A DNA stretch of 64,000 nt. Source: an uncultured Prevotellaceae bacterium. GTDB lineage: Bacteria; Bacteroidota; Bacteroidia; Bacteroidales; Bacteroidaceae. Below the pieces are notes generated by a model that did no database searches, was not told the origin of the DNA, and saw only the letters and a program-made list of their open reading frames with translations. Made by a program: the position numbers and the translations under genes. This document shows, in pieces, positions 19,868-30,447 of this stretch (the first letter of the stretch is position 1; each line of letters opens with the position of its first letter). The DNA lies in NCBI GenBank assembly GCA_900318115.1, contig ONJJ01000001.1, positions 62,001 to 126,000 on the forward strand, in the 5' to 3' direction.

Positions 19868-20351
19868 ACAGCGAGGATTCTTTATCTTCAGACCGGTCAA
19901 GATTTTCGTTTTATCCACGTGGCTATACAGGTGCCTCCCCCTTCCGCACGCGTCCCAACCTCCTCCCATCAAGCCCCAAAGTTCCCCTCATCCGGCCGAA
20001 TTCTTCAGACGCAACTTGCGTCTCTACAGACGCAGCCTGCGTCTCTACAGACGCAACCTGCGTCCGCAGCGATGCAGCTTGCGTCTGAACTATTAATCTC
20101 ACATTTACAACCTCATCAGGAAGTATAAGCCAATTCACTTGACTGAGGGACAGAAGAAACAGCGTTTTTTAAGTCTTAACACGTGCGCGCAGAACTTTAT
20201 TTTATATTCGCTCTGATCGGGCTGTCCGCTGATGGCCATCTGCTCCTCGCCCTGATGGGCACTATCTGGAATGGCAGCACGCTTTTCGTCGTGCTTGAAA
20301 CTCGAAACGGGTCTGGTTTTATCTGTTTTCATATTTTTTATGAGGTTTTTA
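19868..20351. other. Non-coding region upstream of the TA module
   Basis: No gene is supported here. Several short frames are open but read through the 21-bp hairpin repeats (20006-20089) or have no family features. The base composition turns AT-rich towards 20300, at the entry to the defence island. Confidence 0.5.
20006..20089. repeat. Four tandem 21-bp palindromic repeats
   Basis: Four consecutive 21-bp units start at 20006, 20027, 20048 and 20069. Each carries an inverted repeat of the form AGACGCA-nccn-TGCGTCT. The first three are close copies and the fourth has drifted. The transcript would form a row of small hairpins just after fRMsr. Confidence 0.85.
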
Positions 20352-20382
20352 TTTGTCGATTCGGAAGTTATATGTATTTTTG
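20352..20382 (+). promoter_or_regulatory. Promoter of the Axe/Txe-type toxin-antitoxin module
   Basis: TTTG (20352-20355), 19 bp, then TATTTTTG (20375-20382) make a textbook Bacteroidetes promoter. It lies 28 bp upstream of the antitoxin ATG. Confidence 0.75.
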
Positions 20383-20410
20383 CGGCGTAAAACAAAAGAA
20401 AGATAGGATT

Positions 20411-20650
20411 ATGACAGCACTACAAATGAATGCAGAACTCTTTCGCGAGCTTAGTATCATTGCTGAAGATGAGAGCCTGATGAAGAAAGCTGTAAAGTAT
20501 CTCAAGAAGCTTGCTGCTAAGAAGCAGGCAATGGATGAGACAGAATATATCATGTCCTCACCTGCAATGGTTGAGATCCTTCGCCAAGGAGAGGAAGACA
20601 TCAAGAATGGTCTTGGCCATGTTATAAAGCTTGAAGACTTATGGAAATAA
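20411..20650 (+). CDS. Axe/RelB-type antitoxin
   Basis: The protein has 79 aa from ATG 20411. A longer open frame upstream crosses the promoter and is not used. The N-terminal helices (LFRELSIIAEDESLMKKAVKYLKKLAAKK) would bind DNA or dimerise. The C-terminal part (SSPAMVEILRQGEEDIKNGLGHVIKLEDLWK) has the usual toxin-wrapping form. Its stop overlaps the toxin start by 10 bp, the normal arrangement. It is intact although its partner toxin is broken. Confidence 0.85.
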   Translation: MTALQMNAELFRELSIIAEDESLMKKAVKYLKKLAAKKQAMDETEYIMSSPAMVEILRQGEEDIKNGLGHVIKLEDLWK

Positions 20651-20909
20651 AGTTTATGCCCAGGGCAGAGGAGGACTTGGCGTATTGGAAAGCAATAGGC
20701 GATAAGCGCATTATGAAGCGCATCACAAAGTTGCTTGCTGACATCCTTGAGCATCCCTTTACAGGCATAGGAAAACCCGAGCCATTGAATGAGAATTGCA
20801 TGGTCTTTGGAGCCGCCGCATCACCGATGAGCACCGCTTGGTTTATTCCGTTAGCGACGGCATTTTTTATGTCTATGTGCTTTCTCTGCGATTCCATTAT
20901 TCTAAATAG
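20641..20909 (+). pseudogene. Txe/YoeB-family toxin, frameshifted
   Basis: The first 52 codons read as a normal Txe/YoeB mRNA interferase (MEIKFMPRAEEDLAYWKAIG...HPFTGIGKPEPLNEN). After GAGAAT at 20791-20796 the frame is lost. Adding one T to the AATT at 20794-20797 restores ENLHGLWSRR, then ITDEHRLVYSV and LRFHYSK with a stop at 20907-20909, for a full length of 89 aa. The Arg and His of the catalytic C-terminal half lie after the lesion. Without it the frame ends at 20916 with an unrelated tail. The toxin is therefore inactive unless this is a sequencing error. Confidence 0.85.
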
Positions 20910-21003
20910 CTTTTAGGATTTCTTCTTCCAACTTGTCCACATCTAATACAGCGACCCTCTGCCCCCAAGTTGGATAACCCTTGAAATCACCTCTTTTGGT
21001 ACG

Positions 21004-21395
21004 ATGTCCATTCTCTACCAAAATCTGAAGCCAGGACGTGCAAAGCGCGATGTGGCAGCAGCCTTTGGAGTTAGTGACACCTTCTTTGTCCGTGGCTCCA
21101 CACATTGGTTTACGTCCGTAACATCTGCGCCCATCATGCCCGTCTTTGGAACAGGACATCGGGTGTACGCCCTCTGATGCCGCGCCATCCTCGTAACACC
21201 TTCATTTCTCAGCCTTCCGCAGGAACCCAACGCACCTATTTCGTTCTTGCCATCATTCGCTATTGGCTGAATCTCATCGATTCCTCCAACACGTTGACAC
21301 AAGACCTCGCTCAGCTTTTTTCCCTCTATCCGAGTGTCTATCCTGGTGCCCTTGGCTTCCCTCAATCCTGACAACAAGAAGCGTTGTGGAAATAG
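21004..21395 (+). pseudogene. Abi-family (AbiD/AbiF-like) phage-resistance gene, remnant
   Basis: Only the C-terminal part survives. Frame one from 21004 reads SILYQNLKPGRAKRDVAAAFGV. A shift near 21091-21093 leads to WLHTLVYVRNICAHHARLWNR, the signature of Abi_2 proteins, then YFVLAIIRYWLNLI and YPSVYPGALGFP. A TGA at 21369 interrupts the final QQEALWK, which ends with TAG at 21393-21395. N-terminal loss, one frameshift and one nonsense codon make it non-functional. I identify it from the motif, not from a search. Confidence 0.75.
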
Positions 21396-21436: not shown

Positions 21437-22120
21437 TTAAGGTTGTGCTTTCGGCTTCCCTTCCTCAATCTTCAAACCCAAGTTATAGAGGTCGGAGATG
21501 CGTTGGAGGTCATCGACTTTGGTGCGGTTACAGATGTTGGAATAGATGTACCAGCCATCGCACTCATGCTGCCAGATGTGGCCTGGGACGGTGGGGCGCT
21601 TGTCCTTGCTAACGAGATTGTAGCCGACATGGATGATGCCAACCGCTGGGATGCGGGCTAAGCCGATTTTCCGGAGGGTATCGATGAAAGTGTCTATGGC
21701 TTGACGATGCCAGATGATGGTGCCGTCGGGGAATGTCACTCGCAACCCCTTCGTCGGGTTCTTGATTATCTTTGTTGGTTCATAAGGAGCAAGAACCTCA
21801 GGCTCCGCTTTGCTCTTCACTGGCGTGCTACTCTTAGGTGTCAGTGTCTTGGCACCCATAATCTCGCTAATCTTCGCCTTACGGCTCAGCGCCACGCTGA
21901 TAGGCTCGCCAGGGTGATACTCCACCACCAACACCAAGTCGCGCTTGATAGGTTCCAGTCGCGGCGCGATGTCATTGCTCAAAGCAGGCAGTATCTCCTC
22001 CTTGATGATACCTTCCTCCAGTTCCTCCACTTGCTGGAGAACTTCTTTATTGAGTCGCACTCCCAAATCGCGAGAGTTCTCAATGATGCTGTATAGTTTC
22101 TCAAGTATGACCATATGCAA
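21437..22120 (-). CDS. Unknown protein of the defence cluster (227 aa)
   Basis: I do not recognise a named function. Residues 1-75 are helical and charged (LYSIIENSRDLGVRLNKEVLQQVEELEEG). A Pro/Lys-rich linker follows (TLTPKSSTPVKSKAEPEV). Residues ~125-220 form a compact domain (LRVTFPDGTIIWHRQAIDTF, KIGLARIPAVG, WQHECDGWYIYSN, RISDLYNLGLKIE). This domain aligns by eye with almost all of the 115-aa protein on the other side of SIR2. It is the last gene of the minus-strand cluster, 64 bp after SIR2. An accessory role in the same system is inferred from position only. Confidence 0.75.
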   Translation of the reverse strand: MHMVILEKLYSIIENSRDLGVRLNKEVLQQVEELEEGIIKEEILPALSNDIAPRLEPIKRDLVLVVEYHPGEPISVALSRKAKISEIMGAKTLTPKSSTPVKSKAEPEVLAPYEPTKIIKNPTKGLRVTFPDGTIIWHRQAIDTFIDTLRKIGLARIPAVGIIHVGYNLVSKDKRPTVPGHIWQHECDGWYIYSNICNRTKVDDLQRISDLYNLGLKIEEGKPKAQP

Positions 22121-22184
22121 TAGTTGTTTTTAGAGTCACGAATCAATCCTCATTAATTCCCTTCCTCATGAAAGATAAATACGG

Positions 22185-23393
22185 TCATATCCCTAATTTA
22201 TTCAATAAATTTTTCCAAATATTTTCATGTAGGTCAATGTTCTCTACTCTTATAACATTAAGACCCACATCTTGCAAATTATTAGCCTTTTCATCATTGA
22301 TATTTTCGGAATTTCTACATACATACCACCCCTTTAGACCATATTTAGCGCGTTCTTTCAACAACCACCATAATACTTCTTCATCTTTCTCCAATCCTAA
22401 GCCGAAGATGAATAGATTTTTCCGAAACACAATGCTTAGCCAAGAATTATTATTGTCCCAATGATTATCTTTCAACGGATTTGTCGTCTTTTTTAATCTC
22501 GCTTGTATCTCTCGTTGTAAATTATCGTAATCAGCTTGTCCTATCCTAATGCTGTTAACATAGTAGTATAAACCATGAATATGCCAAATAGCGAAGCTAT
22601 CCCAAGGATGATTTATAGGAGATGGCGCAAAATACGTTTCAAATGGGAAACCTTCTTGGGCCTTATTGCTAGCTCCATCAGTTATTCTTGGAGATAAATG
22701 AGATAGCTTGCTTAATGAGGTATCATAATTCGTGGTCAATATTGGAGATTGTATTGCTTCTGCAACTTTTATAAAAGGAATAATCCAGTCCTTCAAAGTG
22801 TAATTATCAAAAAGGGTCTTGATAATCTGTTTAGCCGCAAAATCGTCTGTTTTTCCTTGAGCCACAATATTGATAACAATGGATCGTGCATCAAATGAAT
22901 TCGGATTGTTATTTATTCCAACAGATGCCATTATTATCTCAACTCGCGTTCTTATTTCTTTTTCTAACTGTTGTAACCTTTCATTTTTTTGATACAGACC
23001 ATTAAGATAACTCATCTTATCAATATCCCCAGATTGCGGCGAATTAGGGATGTCAATATAAGTAAAATCTTTAAACATACAGGGCTCTTCAATACTATCA
23101 ACAAGAATGGACAAATAATTGGTTGATTCTTTATGACTACGTTCAATGTCTTCACTTTCTTTTCTCAAAACAATGGAATCAAACTGTCTTGGGAGTGATA
23201 ATGTACTATTTAAACAACACTCCTTTTTTCTTGGGAATAGTTCATCCCGTACTTTCATGATTAACTCTTTCCAATCAACTTTCCCTGAAATATGCTTCTC
23301 ATGCTGCTCGTATTGATGTATTCCATTGCCTACTAGAAAGACTATGGAATCAAGATTCTGCATAACTAAAGATGAAAGTTCTTCGCACGTCAT
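22185..23393 (-). CDS. SIR2-like defence protein
   Basis: The protein has 402 aa with the SIR2 NAD-binding fold. It shows LVGNGI (20-25) in place of the GAG loop, ILTTNYDTSL (218-227) with the family Asn222, WHIHG (270-274) with catalytic-type His273, and FIFGLGLEKDEEVLW (328-342). There are no sirtuin zinc cysteines. Proteins of this kind in Thoeris and in SIR2-based abortive systems deplete NAD+ when phage is sensed. The gene is very AT-rich (about 23% GC in one 60-bp sample, against more than 50% in core genes), a sign of transfer. It follows the 115-aa gene after a 246-bp gap in which I see no gene. Confidence 0.85.
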   Translation of the reverse strand: MTCEELSSLVMQNLDSIVFLVGNGIHQYEQHEKHISGKVDWKELIMKVRDELFPRKKECCLNSTLSLPRQFDSIVLRKESEDIERSHKESTNYLSILVDSIEEPCMFKDFTYIDIPNSPQSGDIDKMSYLNGLYQKNERLQQLEKEIRTRVEIIMASVGINNNPNSFDARSIVINIVAQGKTDDFAAKQIIKTLFDNYTLKDWIIPFIKVAEAIQSPILTTNYDTSLSKLSHLSPRITDGASNKAQEGFPFETYFAPSPINHPWDSFAIWHIHGLYYYVNSIRIGQADYDNLQREIQARLKKTTNPLKDNHWDNNNSWLSIVFRKNLFIFGLGLEKDEEVLWWLLKERAKYGLKGWYVCRNSENINDEKANNLQDVGLNVIRVENIDLHENIWKNLLNKLGI

Positions 23394-23639
23394 AATTGCG
23401 TTATTATTATCATGTCATTCTTATCATTTAACCTAAAGCGTCTCGTTCTGATTTTGCAGGTCTTTGCGAGGAATCCAAACTCTTTGCAAAAATAGTAATT
23501 ATTATCAAAATATTGGCTTTTTTCTACATATTTTTTAAATTTCCTTCTCTATTATTTTTATCTTGTTCAGTTAGAACGTAGAACCGATAGACAAGACAGT
23601 CGATTAGCTTTGAAATTCTATATTGCTTTTCTGATTCTT

Positions 23640-23987
23640 TCACAACTGGCTATATTCTGAAGGTTCCTCAATTTCCACCTTAATTTTAATATTTAAAGTT
23701 TGACCAATCCTTTCCAAAAGACTCTTTTTTCCAATTGTTGATAAATGAGTGCATACAAACCCATACTTCCCAAGAGAATTCATTTGTTTTCGATTATCTC
23801 TTTTGGGAACTATTAACGGCAACCCATCAAGGGTGTACTTGTTCAGAACCGAAATCCTTGTTGGACCAATCATTTTGATAGCATTTACAAAAACGTCTGT
23901 AGCTTTTTCTCCCTTAACCATCTTGCCTTTGATGGTTACTTTGAGCTTTTTTGCTGGTGATTTCTTTCTTTTAGTTTCGTTTTCCAT
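23640..23987 (-). CDS. Unknown 115-aa protein, paralogue of the 227-aa protein's C-terminal domain
   Basis: A basic N-terminus (MENETKRKKSPAKKLKV) leads into a single domain: GEKATDVFVNAIKMIGPTRI, LDGLPLIVPKRDN, KYGFVCTH and LLERIGQTLNIKIKVEIEEP. Its pattern (K-L-V-T, A-D-F, I-G--R-I, G, L-N--I-K-E) matches residues ~125-220 of the 227-aa protein. It begins 7 bp after the methyltransferase stop, so it is translated from the same mRNA. Its function is unknown. It could be a DNA-binding or sensor subunit of the restriction system. Confidence 0.75.
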   Translation of the reverse strand: MENETKRKKSPAKKLKVTIKGKMVKGEKATDVFVNAIKMIGPTRISVLNKYTLDGLPLIVPKRDNRKQMNSLGKYGFVCTHLSTIGKKSLLERIGQTLNIKIKVEIEEPSEYSQL

Positions 23988-23994
23988 ATATATT

Positions 23995-26900
23995 CTACTT
24001 TTCTATAATTTGTATTTCATCGTTTGATAATTTGTACAATTGATATACAATTTCGTCAATCATCGATTCTTCTTCCGACGTATCGGAATGATTATTAATG
24101 CTTTTCTTTTTAATAATAATAGTTACAAGTTCTTTCAATTTTAATTGAGTGGCATTATCAATAGTTGGAATAGGCAAATTGTCTATTTCGTATCCATTAA
24201 CATTACTATTCGTGCTAAAACACCTGAAAAACCAATTGATTAGTTTTGAGTTGAGAATCCCTAATAACGCATAGATGTTTAAGCCGTTTGGAGCAAATAG
24301 ATAGTTACAAGAATTAGCTAAATAGTATCCCTCGGGAACCAATGCCATTACTATACGTATTTTATCATTTGCTCCAGTCATCCCTTGCATGGCAATACGC
24401 ATATAGTTGTGATGCTTTGACTTATCAGACTTACCATAATCCTTCAAGTATTTAACCTCATCAAGATATTCTATCTCACCTTGACTCATCTGTAGAGTAT
24501 AGTAATATCTTTGTATGGCTGCACCTTTTAGTATTATCGGATAATATCTGTTATTTGTGAAATAATCTTTATGGAATGTCATGTTGAGCTCTCCTTCAAT
24601 ACATCTCAGACCAAATTCTCTAAGTTTTGTCATTTTTATAACAATTGGAGTAAAATCTGCATTTAACCTTGGTATAGCTAGATCAACTGGATCCATAGAT
24701 TTAATCTCATCGTAATTGAATCTTGTCTTTAGACCAGATGTTTTATTTTTTTCGTCCCATATATATACGAGGAAATAATCTTTTGTTTTTCTTTTTCTTA
24801 CGATTGGAATACAAACGCTCATCTTAACACTCTCAAATACTCTTTTCTTCTTGCTGTCTCGCTCAGGAAAGGAATCAATTGATAAGAATTGTGCGTGTTC
24901 AAGAATATATTGTCTCAGATTAGTAGCCTGTCTGTCTGCCAATAAGGAATTTTGGCATATTACACACATAATGCCTTCTTCGCGGCACATGCTACCTAAA
25001 GCACTTGCTATAAATAGCTTATATGCATTTAGCTTACCTCCAAATGCTATTTTGTATTCTTTGACATCTCTCAGCTCTTTAATCTCACCAACATGGTTCT
25101 CTTGATAAACAAAATACGGCGGATTACCAATCACAATATCAAAACCACCTTGCAAGAACACATCATAGAACCAAGTATGCCAGAGGAAGAACTGGTCGTT
25201 GCCGGAGAGGTCGAGAGTGCCGAAGTCGAGGTCAATGCTTTGCTCGCGAAGTTGCTGCTTCACATTATCTATTATGCGTGCGCGAAGATCTTGCTTCTTG
25301 TGGTGGTCGGTGCAGTTGTAGTATTCATCCAACATCTTACGAAGGTCAAGACGGAAGACATCAAGCATATTGTCGAAGATGGAGAGCATACCAGACTCAT
25401 CGGCTTTCTTCTCGGTCATTGTGGAGAGGTCAACACTCTTGTATTGCTCCAACAACGAGTTGCCCTGCATGATTTTGAAGTCAAGGTTGGGTAATGCCTG
25501 AGGTGTCTCTTCATCCACGATAAGTGCGAGCCAGAAGCGGAGGCGGGCGATGTCAACGGCACCACGTTCGATGTCAACACCATAAATATTCTTCTGGATG
25601 ATGTGCTTCTTGATTTCAGCGGCTTGGTGCTGGCTGATGCCTTCGAGGGCGGTACGGCAGAGGAAGAGTTCTTTGAGCAAGCCCATGGGGAAGGCTCCTG
25701 AGCCAATGGCGGGGTCGCATATCTTGACGTCCTTTAATGCATCGTCCACTTGCTGCAAGAACTTGGCGTTGGTGCCGAGAGCATGGACATCATGAGTGGT
25801 GACGAACTGACGAATGGCTTCTTTGGTCGGTTCATCTTCAATATCTGTTTGGAGGTAGGCAATCAAGGATTCACGACACATATAGGTGACAATCTCCTTG
25901 GGCGTATAGAAAGCCCCTTTGTCCTTGTTGTCTTCCAGCAAGTTCTCGAAGATGCGGCCAAGCATTTCTGGGTCAACACCCACCTCGGCATCATCGGGAT
26001 CGTTCTCGTCGATGGTGAAATTATAGGACGCGAAGAAGTCAAGCAACGATTGCATGTATTGGGCAGGCAGGGGAAACTCCGTTTCATCTGCGGCTTCGCG
26101 CTCGAACAAGCCACCATTTAAATAAGGTACGCGTATGCGAGAACCCACGGCAGGCGACACAAGATTATTGGTACGTTCGGTGTTGAGGTCGTTGAATAGC
26201 GCTTCCAAAACGTTGTCGATAAAGTGGTCCTTATCTTTACAACTACTAAACAAGTTCTGGATGAATTCAGGGTCACCATCACCCCACTTGCCTTGAACTG
26301 GTACACCCAGCCAACCTTTCTTCTGGAGGAACTGAAGGAAGACGAGTCGGCCCATGAGTTTCTTCACGTAGTCACGCACAGCTTTTTCGGGATTTGCGAA
26401 GCGGGCGAACTGCTGCATGATGAATGCATTGGGGTTTCCTTCCTGTCGCTCTTCCCATTTGCCTCCGACCTTCACCATTCGCTTACCCGTGACGTGGAAG
26501 ATGATGTCTTCGTACTGCTGCTTGTAGCCCTTGAAGAACATATCGCCAACGGCTTCCACGGAGAAGGCTTTCGTCAGGTCTTTCAGCGAGAGAGCACTAT
26601 CGCGCAGTTTCTCGAACTGCTGAATGGCCGTGCGGCTGCGATGCCCTTCGCCCAGAAGGTAAGTGAAGCGCTTGGTGTCTGTTGACTCTTTCTTATAACT
26701 GCCATCATCGGCGAACGTCCATGATTCGCTGACATACGAGAAGCGCAACACGCTCTCGTTCTTGCGATAGCAGAACATGAATGCTCCCGCATTGCCATTG
26801 TTGCGCCAGGCCGTGAGCAGCATATCACGGATACCACGACGGTTGCGTTCGATATCCACGCTCTCTGCCAGCTCCACTTCGTAGATGCTTATGGTCTGCT

Positions 26901-27075
26901 CATCGCTGAGGGTGATAGTGCCGAGCCAGAGTGCCTGTTTGGCAAACTGGCTGCTGGTTGATACAGGGGATGGGGTGTTCCAGAACTTGACTTTATTACC
27001 GAAGATGTCATGCAGCAGCAATTGCCAGTTCTGACGGTTATAGCGAGATTCGATGATGTCTCTATACGGTACCAT
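23995..27075 (-). CDS. Eco57I-type N6-adenine DNA methyltransferase
   Basis: The protein has 1026 aa. The N-terminal ~200 residues include ITLSDEQTISIYEVELAE, which might be a nuclease-like or docking domain. Helical segments follow, then DKGAFYTPKEIV (386-397), SAM motif I in CDPAIGSGAFPMG (453-464), YGVDIERGAVDIARLR, and the adenine-methylase catalytic motif GNPPYFV (650-656). The rest is a target-recognition region ending in GYEIDNLPIPT. The gene is mosaic: codons before ~630 are moderately GC-rich and those after are about 27-33% GC. It lies 24 bp downstream of the helicase. It probably marks host DNA for the helicase-nuclease partner. Confidence 0.88.
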   Translation of the reverse strand: MVPYRDIIESRYNRQNWQLLLHDIFGNKVKFWNTPSPVSTSSQFAKQALWLGTITLSDEQTISIYEVELAESVDIERNRRGIRDMLLTAWRNNGNAGAFMFCYRKNESVLRFSYVSESWTFADDGSYKKESTDTKRFTYLLGEGHRSRTAIQQFEKLRDSALSLKDLTKAFSVEAVGDMFFKGYKQQYEDIIFHVTGKRMVKVGGKWEERQEGNPNAFIMQQFARFANPEKAVRDYVKKLMGRLVFLQFLQKKGWLGVPVQGKWGDGDPEFIQNLFSSCKDKDHFIDNVLEALFNDLNTERTNNLVSPAVGSRIRVPYLNGGLFEREAADETEFPLPAQYMQSLLDFFASYNFTIDENDPDDAEVGVDPEMLGRIFENLLEDNKDKGAFYTPKEIVTYMCRESLIAYLQTDIEDEPTKEAIRQFVTTHDVHALGTNAKFLQQVDDALKDVKICDPAIGSGAFPMGLLKELFLCRTALEGISQHQAAEIKKHIIQKNIYGVDIERGAVDIARLRFWLALIVDEETPQALPNLDFKIMQGNSLLEQYKSVDLSTMTEKKADESGMLSIFDNMLDVFRLDLRKMLDEYYNCTDHHKKQDLRARIIDNVKQQLREQSIDLDFGTLDLSGNDQFFLWHTWFYDVFLQGGFDIVIGNPPYFVYQENHVGEIKELRDVKEYKIAFGGKLNAYKLFIASALGSMCREEGIMCVICQNSLLADRQATNLRQYILEHAQFLSIDSFPERDSKKKRVFESVKMSVCIPIVRKRKTKDYFLVYIWDEKNKTSGLKTRFNYDEIKSMDPVDLAIPRLNADFTPIVIKMTKLREFGLRCIEGELNMTFHKDYFTNNRYYPIILKGAAIQRYYYTLQMSQGEIEYLDEVKYLKDYGKSDKSKHHNYMRIAMQGMTGANDKIRIVMALVPEGYYLANSCNYLFAPNGLNIYALLGILNSKLINWFFRCFSTNSNVNGYEIDNLPIPTIDNATQLKLKELVTIIIKKKSINNHSDTSEEESMIDEIVYQLYKLSNDEIQIIEK

Positions 27076-27099
27076 GATGATTTCCTATTTTACGATTTC

Positions 27100-30000
27100 C
27101 TATTGACAATTTGTTTCTTGAAAGCTCTCGGAGAGGATGATGACGGCATCGGATTCCTCCTCGGCATGCTGCGTGTCGCGATAGTAGGCGTTGTAGTGAT
27201 TGGCCATTTCGAGGATTTGCTTCAACGCTTCGTCGAAGGTCATCTTCGCCTTGCTGCCGCCGTGTCGCTGCAGGTCTTTCTGAATACGCTGCAGTCGCTT
27301 GGCGATATAGGTGATGGTGCCTCGTTCTGCAAGTTCCTTCAGCTGAACCAGCTTCAGGCGTATGTCACCATCCTCAATATGAGGCATCATGCTGTTGATG
27401 AGGCTGACGGCCGTCGTCACCTGAGCACCCAGGTTGCTGCGCTGGCTTTGGTTCTGTTCTTCCTCGTGCAGTTCCTGTTCTTTGACACGATAGAACTCCT
27501 TCACAGCCTGTTCCACGTGTTCATGGTGCTGCGCGATTCTTGCCACCGGTTTCTCTTCGGGTTGAGCCTTGAAATAGTTGAGCGCATCGAGCACGGAGAT
27601 TTCACGAACCTGTTCATCGCTGACCATATAGAAGAGTTTACGGAAGTTGGTCTTGAGGAATACCAACGTATCGTCGGATAAGGTCACTCCATCGATTTCC
27701 CGAGGCTCGCGACCCGTTCGGCTGCGTAACGATAGTCGCTCAATGCGCTTGTATTCCTTGCGGTTCTGTAGATAGAGCGTGCGCAGTTCCTCATAGAAGG
27801 GTAGTTCCAAGTTGCGGTCTTCCTGCTCGCGCTTGATCCCTTCCTTGAAGAGCTTGTCGAGGTCGCGGTCGATGATTTCCTCTGTGCTGTAAATCTGGTT
27901 GTCCTCCCCGAAGGTGGTGTGGAAGGTCTGTATCTTGCTCAATGCAATTTGGTTGAGCTTGATTTCCTTGTTGCCTTGCTCCGAGGGGTAGAACACATAG
28001 TTATAAATGGTGTCGGATTTCGAGCCAATACGGTTCACACGCCCTATGCGCTGCATCAGACGGGTGGAGTTCCACGGGGTGTCGTAGTTGATGATGATAT
28101 TGGAGCGATGAAGGTTGACACCCTCTGCCAAGACGTCGGAGGTGAGGATGATGTTGTAGTCGTTCTTCTGCTCCTTCCAGTTGGCATCGAAGTTCTCGCG
28201 GATGGTCTTAAACAGCGTACTGCGGTTGTTGGAGGAGATGACCAGCGCATCTTTGCGATTGATGCGGCGAGCCAGATATTCAATTGTATCTACCGATTCA
28301 GAGAACACCACAATCTTCCCTTCTGGATTGCGCTCTTTCCTGAAGAGCTCATGCTTCAGCAGGTCTTCGAACCGGGCAAACTTCGAGTCGTCGTCATCGT
28401 CGATGTATTCCCATTCCAACCACATGTCATCAAGCAGCTTCTGATCTTGTTGCAGCATCTCGATATACTCCGGACGGAAGTCATCACGCTTGAACACGGC
28501 GTTCTTGGGATTCGTCTCAGCCTTCTCGTTTAGTTTCTCCTCTATCTCATCATCGGTATAGCCCTTCTCGTAGAGCAGGTTGATGTCCATATCCGGCGCG
28601 ATGAAGATGCGGTCGTTCTCCCACATCTGAAGCATGTTCTCATTGGCCTGACGGAAGTTCTCCACGGATTTCTTGAAGGCATAGAAACTGCTTTCCAGTC
28701 GCTTGACCAGTCCGTTCTTTCGGATACCAGCCAAACTGCGGCTGATGAGTTCGGCATTATCATAGAGTCCGTTGGAGGCTTCTGGCTTCAGAAAGGCGAT
28801 AGCCTGATAGCGGGCGTAGGTCAAGCGTTTGTCCAGAATGTCCATTGCCTCCTTGAAGAGGGTAGCCAAGTGGGGATTCAATTCATATTCCTTCTTGATA
28901 GGTTCGGCCACCTTGGGGAAACCATGTACATCTTTATTATAGCGCGGAATGCTCTCGATGTCCGTTCGGGTACGTCTGACCGTCAGAGGCTTGATGACGC
29001 GGTCACGCACGCGCTCTGCTAGCTTCTTGAATTGCTTGACATCGAAGTTCTCCTGCTTGCGGAACTTGCGGAACTCCACAACGAGGGGTGAGAAGAACGC
29101 CGTCAGGTTGGGAACGCCATCAATGGTGCAGCGGCGCGGATCCTGAAACATCGATATCTGATAGTAAAGGTCTGCGGGAGTGTTGTTCATCGGCGTTGCA
29201 GAAATCAGCATCACCTTTTTCTTGTAGCCTGGAATGTTGCCCGTTTCCACGCGGGGCATTTTGCAGATTTCCTGCAACTGCTGGAAGGCACCGGTGGTGT
29301 GGTTGCGGAATTTATGCGCTTCATCCACCAGCACGAGGTCGTACTCATCGGCATTCCAATACTTGTAGTTGTCATCATCGAGCACTTTGCCAAGACTGCC
29401 GTTGCTGACAAAGCAGGCATACTTGTCGATGCCGAAATCCTTGAAGGTTGATATCCAGTTCTGCTCCACGGCAGGTGGATAGACCACCAGAATCTTCGTG
29501 TGGTCGCGTCCGTTCTCGATGAGGAACTTCTTGGCAATCATTGTGGCGATGACTGTCTTTCCCAGACCTACTACGTCTGCAAGGAAGAAACCGTCGTAGC
29601 GGATGAGCTTCTGATAGCCTTCGATGACAGCATCCGATTGATACTCGAACTTGTCGTACTTATCAGGCATATCGAAGGGATCGTCCTGGTCAACTTCTAG
29701 CACGCGGTCGGAGAAGTATTCCATCAGCATCTTGATGTAAAGCTCGTATGGCGTGACATCACCCTTCAGGTAGGTCTTATCGAGCGTTGCCTGATAGTCC
29801 TCGGCATTGATGGGTACTCCCTTGGCTTCTTCCCACAGCAGTTCAAACTCATGCTTGGCGAAGGCCACATCTTCGTATTGTGTTAGTTTGACGTTGAACT
29901 CATACTGCTTTTCATCGCTGATACCTAATCCGTTGCCGCTGAGGTTGCTACTGCCTGTGATGGCGGCACCGAAGGTGTGCTGGTTGTAGTTGTCAGGATA

Positions 30001-30447
30001 GAGGATATAGAGCTTGGCATGAATCTTCTTGGAGGGATGGGCGCGCAATTCCAGTTTGCCGTCCAGCATATCCTGCACCATCTGAAGCATGCCATCCTCC
30101 ACCTGCTTAGTGTAGTTGGATTGTTCGATGTCTTCCTTCAGTTTCCTTAAGCACTCCTCCTTAACCTCTTCTTCGGCGCCGAAAAATAGTTCGCCTTTCT
30201 GATGGGCACGGGCGATGTATTTATCCACGTCAATGCCTATCAGGATGCGTACCTTATTTATACTATTAAGGAACGGGCGCAAGGTAAAATAGCCTGATGC
30301 ACGAAGGAAACCAACCACGGCATCAAGGTTCTTCACTTGAGGGTTGTTCTCCAGAATACCCTCGAACTCTTTCATCAAAGTGTTCCCATCTCTATTGGTG
30401 AAGATATGGGAAGATACAGGAATGTCCTGCTGATTCATAGCAAGCAA
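27100..30447 (-). CDS. PLD nuclease-SNF2 helicase fusion
   Basis: The protein has 1115 aa. Residues ~35-215 form a phospholipase-D-type nuclease domain with one HxK motif (HAKLYIL, 143-149) and GSSNLSGNG (165-173), so it likely acts as a dimer. The SF2/SNF2 ATPase follows: VGLGKT (293-298), LVLVDEAH (371-378), LISATPMNN, then the second RecA lobe with IVVFSES, TSDVLAEGVNLH and the arginine finger region LMQRIGRVNRIG. A coiled, charged C-terminus closes it. DISARM keeps these activities in separate genes (drmC, drmD). Here they are fused and paired with a methyltransferase 24 bp downstream. The start could also be the ATG three codons later. Confidence 0.88.
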   Translation of the reverse strand: MLAMNQQDIPVSSHIFTNRDGNTLMKEFEGILENNPQVKNLDAVVGFLRASGYFTLRPFLNSINKVRILIGIDVDKYIARAHQKGELFFGAEEEVKEECLRKLKEDIEQSNYTKQVEDGMLQMVQDMLDGKLELRAHPSKKIHAKLYILYPDNYNQHTFGAAITGSSNLSGNGLGISDEKQYEFNVKLTQYEDVAFAKHEFELLWEEAKGVPINAEDYQATLDKTYLKGDVTPYELYIKMLMEYFSDRVLEVDQDDPFDMPDKYDKFEYQSDAVIEGYQKLIRYDGFFLADVVGLGKTVIATMIAKKFLIENGRDHTKILVVYPPAVEQNWISTFKDFGIDKYACFVSNGSLGKVLDDDNYKYWNADEYDLVLVDEAHKFRNHTTGAFQQLQEICKMPRVETGNIPGYKKKVMLISATPMNNTPADLYYQISMFQDPRRCTIDGVPNLTAFFSPLVVEFRKFRKQENFDVKQFKKLAERVRDRVIKPLTVRRTRTDIESIPRYNKDVHGFPKVAEPIKKEYELNPHLATLFKEAMDILDKRLTYARYQAIAFLKPEASNGLYDNAELISRSLAGIRKNGLVKRLESSFYAFKKSVENFRQANENMLQMWENDRIFIAPDMDINLLYEKGYTDDEIEEKLNEKAETNPKNAVFKRDDFRPEYIEMLQQDQKLLDDMWLEWEYIDDDDDSKFARFEDLLKHELFRKERNPEGKIVVFSESVDTIEYLARRINRKDALVISSNNRSTLFKTIRENFDANWKEQKNDYNIILTSDVLAEGVNLHRSNIIINYDTPWNSTRLMQRIGRVNRIGSKSDTIYNYVFYPSEQGNKEIKLNQIALSKIQTFHTTFGEDNQIYSTEEIIDRDLDKLFKEGIKREQEDRNLELPFYEELRTLYLQNRKEYKRIERLSLRSRTGREPREIDGVTLSDDTLVFLKTNFRKLFYMVSDEQVREISVLDALNYFKAQPEEKPVARIAQHHEHVEQAVKEFYRVKEQELHEEEQNQSQRSNLGAQVTTAVSLINSMMPHIEDGDIRLKLVQLKELAERGTITYIAKRLQRIQKDLQRHGGSKAKMTFDEALKQILEMANHYNAYYRDTQHAEEESDAVIILSESFQETNCQ

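What the first reader, a model, noticed from the sequence alone, without database searches (positions are those of the whole stretch)
21437..30447. Composite defence cluster: PLD-SNF2 helicase, adenine methyltransferase, SIR2 and two paralogous accessory proteins
Seen: five minus-strand genes, three tightly spaced (24 and 7 bp) and two more after 246 and 64 bp, with a methyltransferase (NPPY, DPAIGSG), a helicase with a PLD nuclease (HxK, GSSNLS), and a SIR2 fold (TTNYD, HIHG). Known: DISARM uses a methyltransferase, an SNF2 helicase and a PLD protein, and SIR2 proteins drive NAD+ depletion. Inferred: this may be a compact restriction module (no drmA/drmB) with a built-in SIR2 suicide arm. The five-gene combination is not one I can name.
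Basis: partly seen in the sequence, partly recalled or inferred. Interest (0 to 1): 0.72.

Follow-up and report, generated by a model that had tools for sequence, protein, structure and literature searches.

The report
Restriction operon with swappable defence genes
A gut-type bacterium carries a DNA-cutting defence operon whose target-recognition part and neighbouring suicide-type gene (here a SIR2 protein) sit in a block that differs between close relatives, which suggests that bacteria refit one defence chassis with different weapons.

Summary
The five genes are real and placed as described, but they are not one fixed system. A PLD-SNF2 helicase and an Eco57I-type adenine methyltransferase form a conserved pair. 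In a subset of Bacteroidales a third gene of no known family (S227) closes the operon: of 61 S227 loci with enough upstream sequence, 43 have the pair upstream. Between methyltransferase and S227 lies a variable slot, empty in 14 of 52 loci, otherwise holding S115 (a one-domain paralogue of S227), SIR2, TIR, AbiGi, DUF2971, YhcG, HNH and other genes, 75 of 84 ORFs co-directional. Of 81 locus pairs with alike cores, 79 lose DNA homology in the target-recognition part; in 73 it ends just behind the NPPY codons, and it resumes at the S227 start in 54 of the 63 pairs where that edge could be measured. Target-recognition domain and cargo (window about 22115-25113) thus behave as exchangeable modules. 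The SIR2 is one such cargo; it recurs in one other of the 52 slots, and TIR genes take its place elsewhere. Leftover methyltransferase tails suggest stacked cassettes. That SIR2 depletes NAD+ as a backup to restriction is inferred. Toxin-restriction coupling is in print; the fixed edges and the S227 family appear new.

The parts
27100..30447 (-). PLD (HKD-type) nuclease - SNF2 helicase, 1115 aa (HEL)
   Evidence: HxK..GSxN, Walker A and DE[AS]H pattern in 40 of 41 long HEL ORFs of the loci, window included; the one miss (L093) is cut by the locus start
23995..27075 (-). Eco57I-type N6-adenine methyltransferase with C-terminal target-recognition domain, 1026 aa (MT)
   Evidence: no ExK conserved at 90% in aa 1-330 of 30 sequences, window included
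25114..27075 (-). constant part of MT up to the NPPY motif
   Evidence: MT aa 1-560 97% and HEL 96% identical to L046; DNA homology ends here
23995..25113 (-). exchanged part of MT behind NPPY (target recognition), low G+C
   Evidence: 34% over 119 aa to L046, 79% to L118; G+C 0.26-0.42 from codon 600 on against 0.49-0.53 before
23640..23987 (-). S115: single-domain paralogue of the S227 C-terminal domain
   Evidence: also directly upstream of S227 or further cargo in L047, L049, L052, L058, L063, L118 and the partial loci L060, L085
23547..23605 (-). remnant of a methyltransferase 3' end between S115 and SIR2
   Evidence: blastn to methyltransferase 3' ends of L062 (1.9e-9), L048 (1.5e-4), L051 (5.2e-4), and to a like piece behind S227 in L047 (1.2e-5); not found by the tail profile
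22185..23393 (-). SIR2-like protein, 402 aa, cargo gene
   Evidence: SIR2_2 1.5e-4; homologue in the same slot of L062, E 2e-131
21437..22114 (-). S227 family protein, last gene of the operon (start codon at 22114)
   Evidence: no Pfam, PADLOC or NCBIfam match at E<=0.1, no PDB sequence match below E 0.47; relatives
22115..25113 (-). exchangeable stretch: target-recognition domain + S115 + SIR2
   Evidence: against 7 of 8 near relatives long homology stops at window 25108-25114 and resumes at 22106-22109; L062 also matches in the SIR2 and L049 over 51 bp of S115; the eighth, L118, matches through target domain and S115

Best explanation
A restriction-modification chassis with an exchangeable slot. 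Shown: helicase and methyltransferase form a conserved pair; in a subset of Bacteroidales a third gene (S227) closes the operon; what lies between the methyltransferase NPPY codons and the S227 start (target-recognition domain plus 0 to 6 ORFs) is unlike between close relatives, sometimes as one block, sometimes the cargo alone. In the window it holds a target-recognition domain with S115 and, behind a leftover methyltransferase tail, a SIR2 gene, so two cassettes appear stacked. Inferred: the methyltransferase marks self DNA, the PLD-SNF2 protein translocates and cuts unmarked DNA, S227 and S115 are accessory subunits of restriction complexes (contact to DNA or protein), recombination in the conserved flanks refits target and cargo, and the SIR2, like the TIR cargo elsewhere, depletes NAD+ as a backup when restriction fails or is blocked.
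For: Pair: MT in 16 of 295 class genomes, the own one included; of the 16 MT loci fetched from the other 15, HEL lies beside or near MT in 15, the sixteenth (L023) ends at its contig end. Slot: 52 loci with MT and S227, 38 with ORFs of 60 aa or more, 75 of 84 ORFs co-directional, first ORF within 33 bp of the MT stop in 28 of 35. Exchange: 81 pairs among 31 loci with core DNA at least 70% alike; 79 without homology in the target part; left edge 0-30 bp from the NPP codon in 73 of 79; right edge within 25 bp of the S227 ATG in 54 of the 63 measurable. Window against L046: 92% DNA identity up to the NPPY codons, about 3 kb without blastn match, 90% from the S227 start. G+C of 47 loci: MT first half 0.445, MT last third 0.336, slot 0.345 (n 34), S227 0.446; Wilcoxon 7e-14 and 1e-10. 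NAD-linked cargo: SIR2 in window and L062; TIR in L044, L094, L105 and, as two ORFs, L099. Tail pieces behind cargo: window, L062, L051, L093 twice. S227 also follows Type I HsdR (L092, L116, L117, L120), and its C-domain is fused to HSDR_N in L181.
Against: The pair works without S227 in most genomes: of 344 order genomes 58 have HEL (E<=1e-40) and 11 an S-family match, and only G000 and G400 have both in one locus; G170 has a divergent pair below the HEL limit. G489 has HEL 89% alike and no S227, while its left edge is the same. 18 of the 61 S227 loci lack a full pair. The SIR2 is in 2 of 52 slots. Same target domain with different cargo (L044/L109) and same SIR2 with different target domain (L062/window) show that the modules are not locked together. 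Pairs are not independent; five pairs with L118 lose homology 273-295 bp before NPPY and L100/L102 113 bp behind it. The tail-profile control (stretches behind S227) also hit one locus, L047. Some slot ORFs may be spurious. No activity was tested.
Confidence: 0.72

Rival explanations
1. Recombination landing pad without functional tie: conserved flanks make the stretch between methyltransferase and S227 a place where any defence gene may ride along; the SIR2 works alone.
For: Cargo is very diverse (50 clusters among the 79 ORFs); 14 of 52 slots are empty; like cores carry unlike cargo and like cargo goes with unlike target domains. SIR2 relatives occur away from HEL/MT.
Against: 75 of 84 ORFs run with the operon and most begin within 33 bp of the MT stop. 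Where Pfam names the cargo it is mostly of defence, toxin-like, restriction or recombinase families; GNAT is an exception. Pairs with like target domains share cargo more often, 5 of 21 against 36 of 1305, Fisher 3e-4, pairs not independent.
Confidence: 0.4
2. A fixed five-gene system in which S115, SIR2 and S227 are obligate subunits.
For: All five in one tight cluster in the window.
Against: Of 52 loci only the window has all five; S115 without SIR2 in 8 loci, SIR2 without S115 in L062, S227 directly behind MT in 14.
Confidence: 0.04
3. S115 and S227 are antitoxins or regulators that keep the cargo toxin silent.
For: S227 follows the cargo; S115 precedes SIR2, DUF2971 or AbiGi cargo in window, L047, L063.
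Against: S227 is present without cargo, with unrelated cargos and behind Type I HsdR; its domain is fused to HSDR_N.
Confidence: 0.1

Closest known systems
PrrC embedded in EcoprrI, a Type I RM locus with a guardian toxin (PMC12707154, PMC3506569, passages read)
   Same: a suicide-type gene inside a restriction operon, acting when restriction is inhibited
   Different: other core (PLD-SNF2 + Eco57I MTase), SIR2 instead of an anticodon nuclease, a slot with fixed edges, S227; activation not tested here
DUF499-centred BREX-related Type-2 systems, overlapping the Hma label (PMC12839542, sections 28 and 35 part 1 and passages read)
   Same: HKD nuclease-Swi2/Snf2 helicase with N6-methyltransferase; backup effectors in the loci
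   Different: no DUF499 match in the genome
CxC-ABC ATPase/PbeABCD systems (PMC10853773, passages read)
   Same: HKD nuclease fused to an SF2 helicase, with a DNA methylase and a small protein
   Different: no ABC ATPase among the five genes by Pfam; DndE not searched
DISARM
   Same: SNF2 helicase and methyltransferase; PLD domain
   Different: DrmD model 139.6 bits against a cut-off of 610; no MZB match in the genome
PADLOC candidate C3a139 (HKD+Snf2)
   Same: best PADLOC match of the helicase, 1.6e-43
   Different: a candidate label; the output names no partner genes

Membership tests
DISARM | drmB with DUF1998/MZB (that PF09369 is this domain is recalled) | tested here: not met
   0 matches in the own genome, found in 8 of 14 control genomes; genome 87% complete
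DISARM | DrmD-type helicase at the curated cut-off | tested here: not met
   139.6 bits against 610
BREX-related Type-2 (Hma) | HKD-Swi2/Snf2 helicase and N6-methyltransferase | tested here: met
   PLDc_2 itself below cut-off
BREX-related Type-2 (Hma) | DUF499 ATPase | tested here: not met
   PF04465 0 matches in the own genome, found in 1 of 14 controls
BREX-related Type-2 (Hma) | DUF3780 gene | not tested
   no search made
Type IIG restriction enzyme | nuclease motif in the methyltransferase chain | tested here: inconclusive
   no ExK conserved at 90% in aa 1-330 of 30 sequences; several PADLOC IIG models match MT, best 7.2e-74
Thoeris | ThsA-type SIR2 with a TIR (ThsB) partner | tested here: not met
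   the SIR2 matches no PADLOC model at 0.1; no TIR among the five genes
SIR2-type NADase effector | Asn and His motifs of the active site (recalled) | tested here: met
   TTNY and IHG in window and L062; of 7 other relatives, 5 carry ING and 2 (L186, L187) IHG
SIR2-type NADase effector | NAD+ hydrolysis | not testable with these tools
   needs an assay
Restriction operon with embedded guardian (PrrC-like) | toxin-type gene inside the restriction operon | tested here: met
   gene order and spacing; that SIR2 is a toxin is inferred
Restriction operon with embedded guardian (PrrC-like) | activation by inhibition of restriction | not testable with these tools
   needs phage experiments

The most novel reading that the evidence does not exclude
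The S227 family is a dedicated adaptor, shared by PLD-SNF2/methyltransferase and Type I restriction systems, that couples the restriction complex to whichever suicide effector sits in the slot, so that one recombination step refits both what the enzyme recognises and what happens when it fails.
Probability: 0.18. Interest if true: 0.85.

Novelty: new variant of a known kind. Interest (0 to 1): 0.6.

Why it matters
That restriction systems carry toxin-like genes, Sir2 among them, and displace one by another is in print (PMC3506569, passages read). What is added is a place where the swap can be measured base by base: edges at a catalytic motif and at the start codon of an unannotated gene, target specificity and effector within one stretch, and fossils of earlier cassettes. 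If SIR2 and TIR cargos prove to fire when restriction is blocked, this is a natural series of effectors on one chassis for testing how restriction and abortive infection are coupled.

Tried and rejected
SIR2 scan of viral contigs: 2 pattern hits, no relative. SIR2 by phmmer against PDB sequences: nothing at E<=1. S227 family against Pfam, 49 members: scattered hits of 1-2 members, best E 0.023; against PDB sequences: best E 0.47. Folds: S227 model mean pLDDT 76, S115 86.5; PDB best E 0.51 and 0.60; BFVD best E 0.078, probability 0.97, a methyltransferase of Bodo saltans virus, TM 0.56 by query: a lead only. First regular expression for the PLD motif was too strict (11 of 43 passed) and was widened. 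My label HsdS for L116:1625 is a guess that looks wrong (the sequence resembles DUF1016 proteins; not scanned). First slot count (36 loci with 79 ORFs, 16 empty) missed the S115 of L118 and merged a later methyltransferase tail in L093; one search corrects both. A first correction set the MT stop too early in about 16 loci and is not used except for its list of tail pieces. Literature searches for this slot or for S227 gave the toxin-coupling and BREX papers and, in the listings and passages seen, nothing describing it; the library holds open-licence papers only. Rows dropped: 19 of 80 S227 loci with too little upstream sequence; 5 of 52 loci from the G+C table; L118 from alignment A5. The G400 and G580 contigs have the lengths of the contigs behind L066, L122 and L069 and are taken as the same records.
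Full report
What is there. Five minus-strand genes lie at the stated coordinates and spacings. In operon order: HEL (PLD-SNF2 helicase), MT (Eco57I-type adenine methyltransferase with a TaqI_C-like target-recognition end), S115, SIR2, S227. Pfam supports helicase and methyltransferase strongly, PLD and SIR2 weakly. S115 and S227 match no Pfam, PADLOC or NCBIfam model at E<=0.1. They are paralogues: S115 corresponds to the C-terminal domain of S227.

The core pair. Of 295 genomes of the class 16, the own one included, had an MT relative at E<=1e-40. Of 16 MT loci fetched from the other 15 genomes, 15 have HEL beside or near MT, in several with other genes between; L023 ends at its contig end. 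Of 344 genomes of the order 58 had HEL. The best PADLOC match is a candidate, C3a139 'HKD+Snf2'. The genome gives no DUF499 and no MZB match, so the cluster meets the definition neither of the BREX-related (Hma) systems nor of DISARM.

The slot. 52 loci hold MT and S227: window, L042, L044 and 49 of the 80. 14 have no ORF of 60 aa between them; in 13 of these 14 MT stop and S227 start are at most 49 bp apart, in L110 95 bp. The other 38 hold 84 ORFs, 75 on the operon's strand; 7 of the 9 others belong to L071, L075 and L123, where a target-recognition piece and a resolvase-family gene lie inverted (Pfam for L071; the others by cluster). Cargo named by Pfam or PADLOC: SIR2 (window, L062), TIR (L044, L094, L105), DUF2971 (L046, L047), AbiGi (L063, L104), Abi_alpha (L104), YhcG/DUF1016 (L078, twice in L093), HNH (L103, L121), Mrr (L105; L102 just below cut-off), AAA_21 (L095), an AAA protein resembling AriA/GajA (L121), GMT-wHTH and DUF5131 (L086), GNAT (L103); by cluster with these: AbiGi in L105, TIR as two ORFs in L099, HNH in L105 and L115. 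Many others match nothing. S115 lies in the slot in the window, L047, L049, L052, L058, L063, L118 and the partial loci L060 and L085.

The exchange. Against L046 (record named uncultured Prevotellaceae) the window is 92% identical in DNA from before HEL to the NPPY codons, has no blastn match over the next 3 kb, and is 90% identical from the S227 start. Seven of 8 near relatives show these edges within a few bases; L062 also matches within the SIR2 and L049 over 51 bp of S115; L118 keeps target domain (79%) and S115 but has another S227. Among 81 pairs (31 loci) with core DNA at least 70% alike, 79 have no homology in the target part. The left edge lies 0-30 bp from the NPP codon in 73 of 79 (median +11, quartiles 11 and 14); the six others are five pairs with L118 and L100/L102. 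The right edge could be measured in 63 and lies within 25 bp of the S227 ATG in 54; the nine others range from -1214 (L104/L105, which share cargo) to +91. Pairs are not independent. Target part and slot have lower G+C than the flanks. Homology that stops at a conserved motif could in principle reflect fast divergence behind it; the jump from 97% to 34% protein identity within one gene, followed by unrelated genes, argues for replacement.

Stacking. Between S115 and SIR2 the window has 59 bp that match methyltransferase 3' ends, and the match to L062 runs on into the sequence before the SIR2 of L062. In L062 a methyltransferase tail lies directly before S227, L051 has one in its slot, and L093 has two, one behind each of two YhcG genes. 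L083, L089 and L124 hold tail pieces without a methyltransferase recognised upstream. In a control, stretches behind S227, one locus (L047) also had such a piece. The simplest history for the window: a cassette of target domain plus S115 (as in L118) was placed before an older tail plus SIR2 (as in L062).

Mechanism. Known families suggest methylation of self by MT and cleavage by the PLD of HEL; all of this is inferred here. The SIR2 keeps the Asn and His motifs; of seven relatives outside the slot five have ING and two IHG. With TIR in the slot of other species, a NAD-depleting backup is the most likely role; a link to restriction failure is by analogy with PrrC in EcoprrI (passages of PMC12707154 and PMC3506569). 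PMC3506569 already states that many Type I and III systems include Sir2 and other toxin-like domains and speaks of repeated toxin displacement; PMC12839542 describes backup nuclease effectors inside BREX and related loci. The general idea is thus known. Not met in the searches made: the S227 family, the fixed edges, target domain and effector in one exchangeable stretch, and the tail fossils.

Noticed in passing
window 20641-20916 (+) and 20183-20650 (+): YoeB-like toxin gene matching only the first 48 of 80 profile positions, beside an ORF with a sub-threshold DUF2683 match: looks broken.
   Followed up: partly
window 21105-21371 (+): Short ORF with 15 residues like the end of Abi_2 (E 6e-4, below cut-off), next to S227 on the other strand: perhaps a remnant.
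   Followed up: partly
L071 4970-10001, L123 4767-10001, L075 8530-9918: Inverted target-recognition piece and resolvase-type gene between MT and S227; inverted repeats of 324 and 331 nt in L071 and L123 (L075 not searched): probable specificity switch by inversion.
   Followed up: partly
L066 9516-10543; L180 7576-8606: N-terminal fragment of HEL directly followed by S227: decayed systems (taken as the same contig).
   Followed up: partly
L092, L116, L117, L120: S227 relative behind a Type I hsdR.
   Followed up: partly
L083 4398-7142, L089 1137-6199, L124 7854-8078: Methyltransferase tail pieces behind a GmrSD-type gene (L083), behind Sacsin/helicase-type genes (L089) and before a Schlafen-type gene (L124), no methyltransferase recognised.
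   Followed up: partly
L183 7296-7964: Two S domains in tandem in one protein, no HEL or MT in the stretch.
   Followed up: no
L037, L038, L045, L184, L185: SIR2 relatives with ING in place of IHG.
   Followed up: no
L086, L115, L122; L044 3833-5377: Genes alike to the AlbA-type gene before HEL in L044, lying between HEL and MT in L086, L115 and L122.
   Followed up: no
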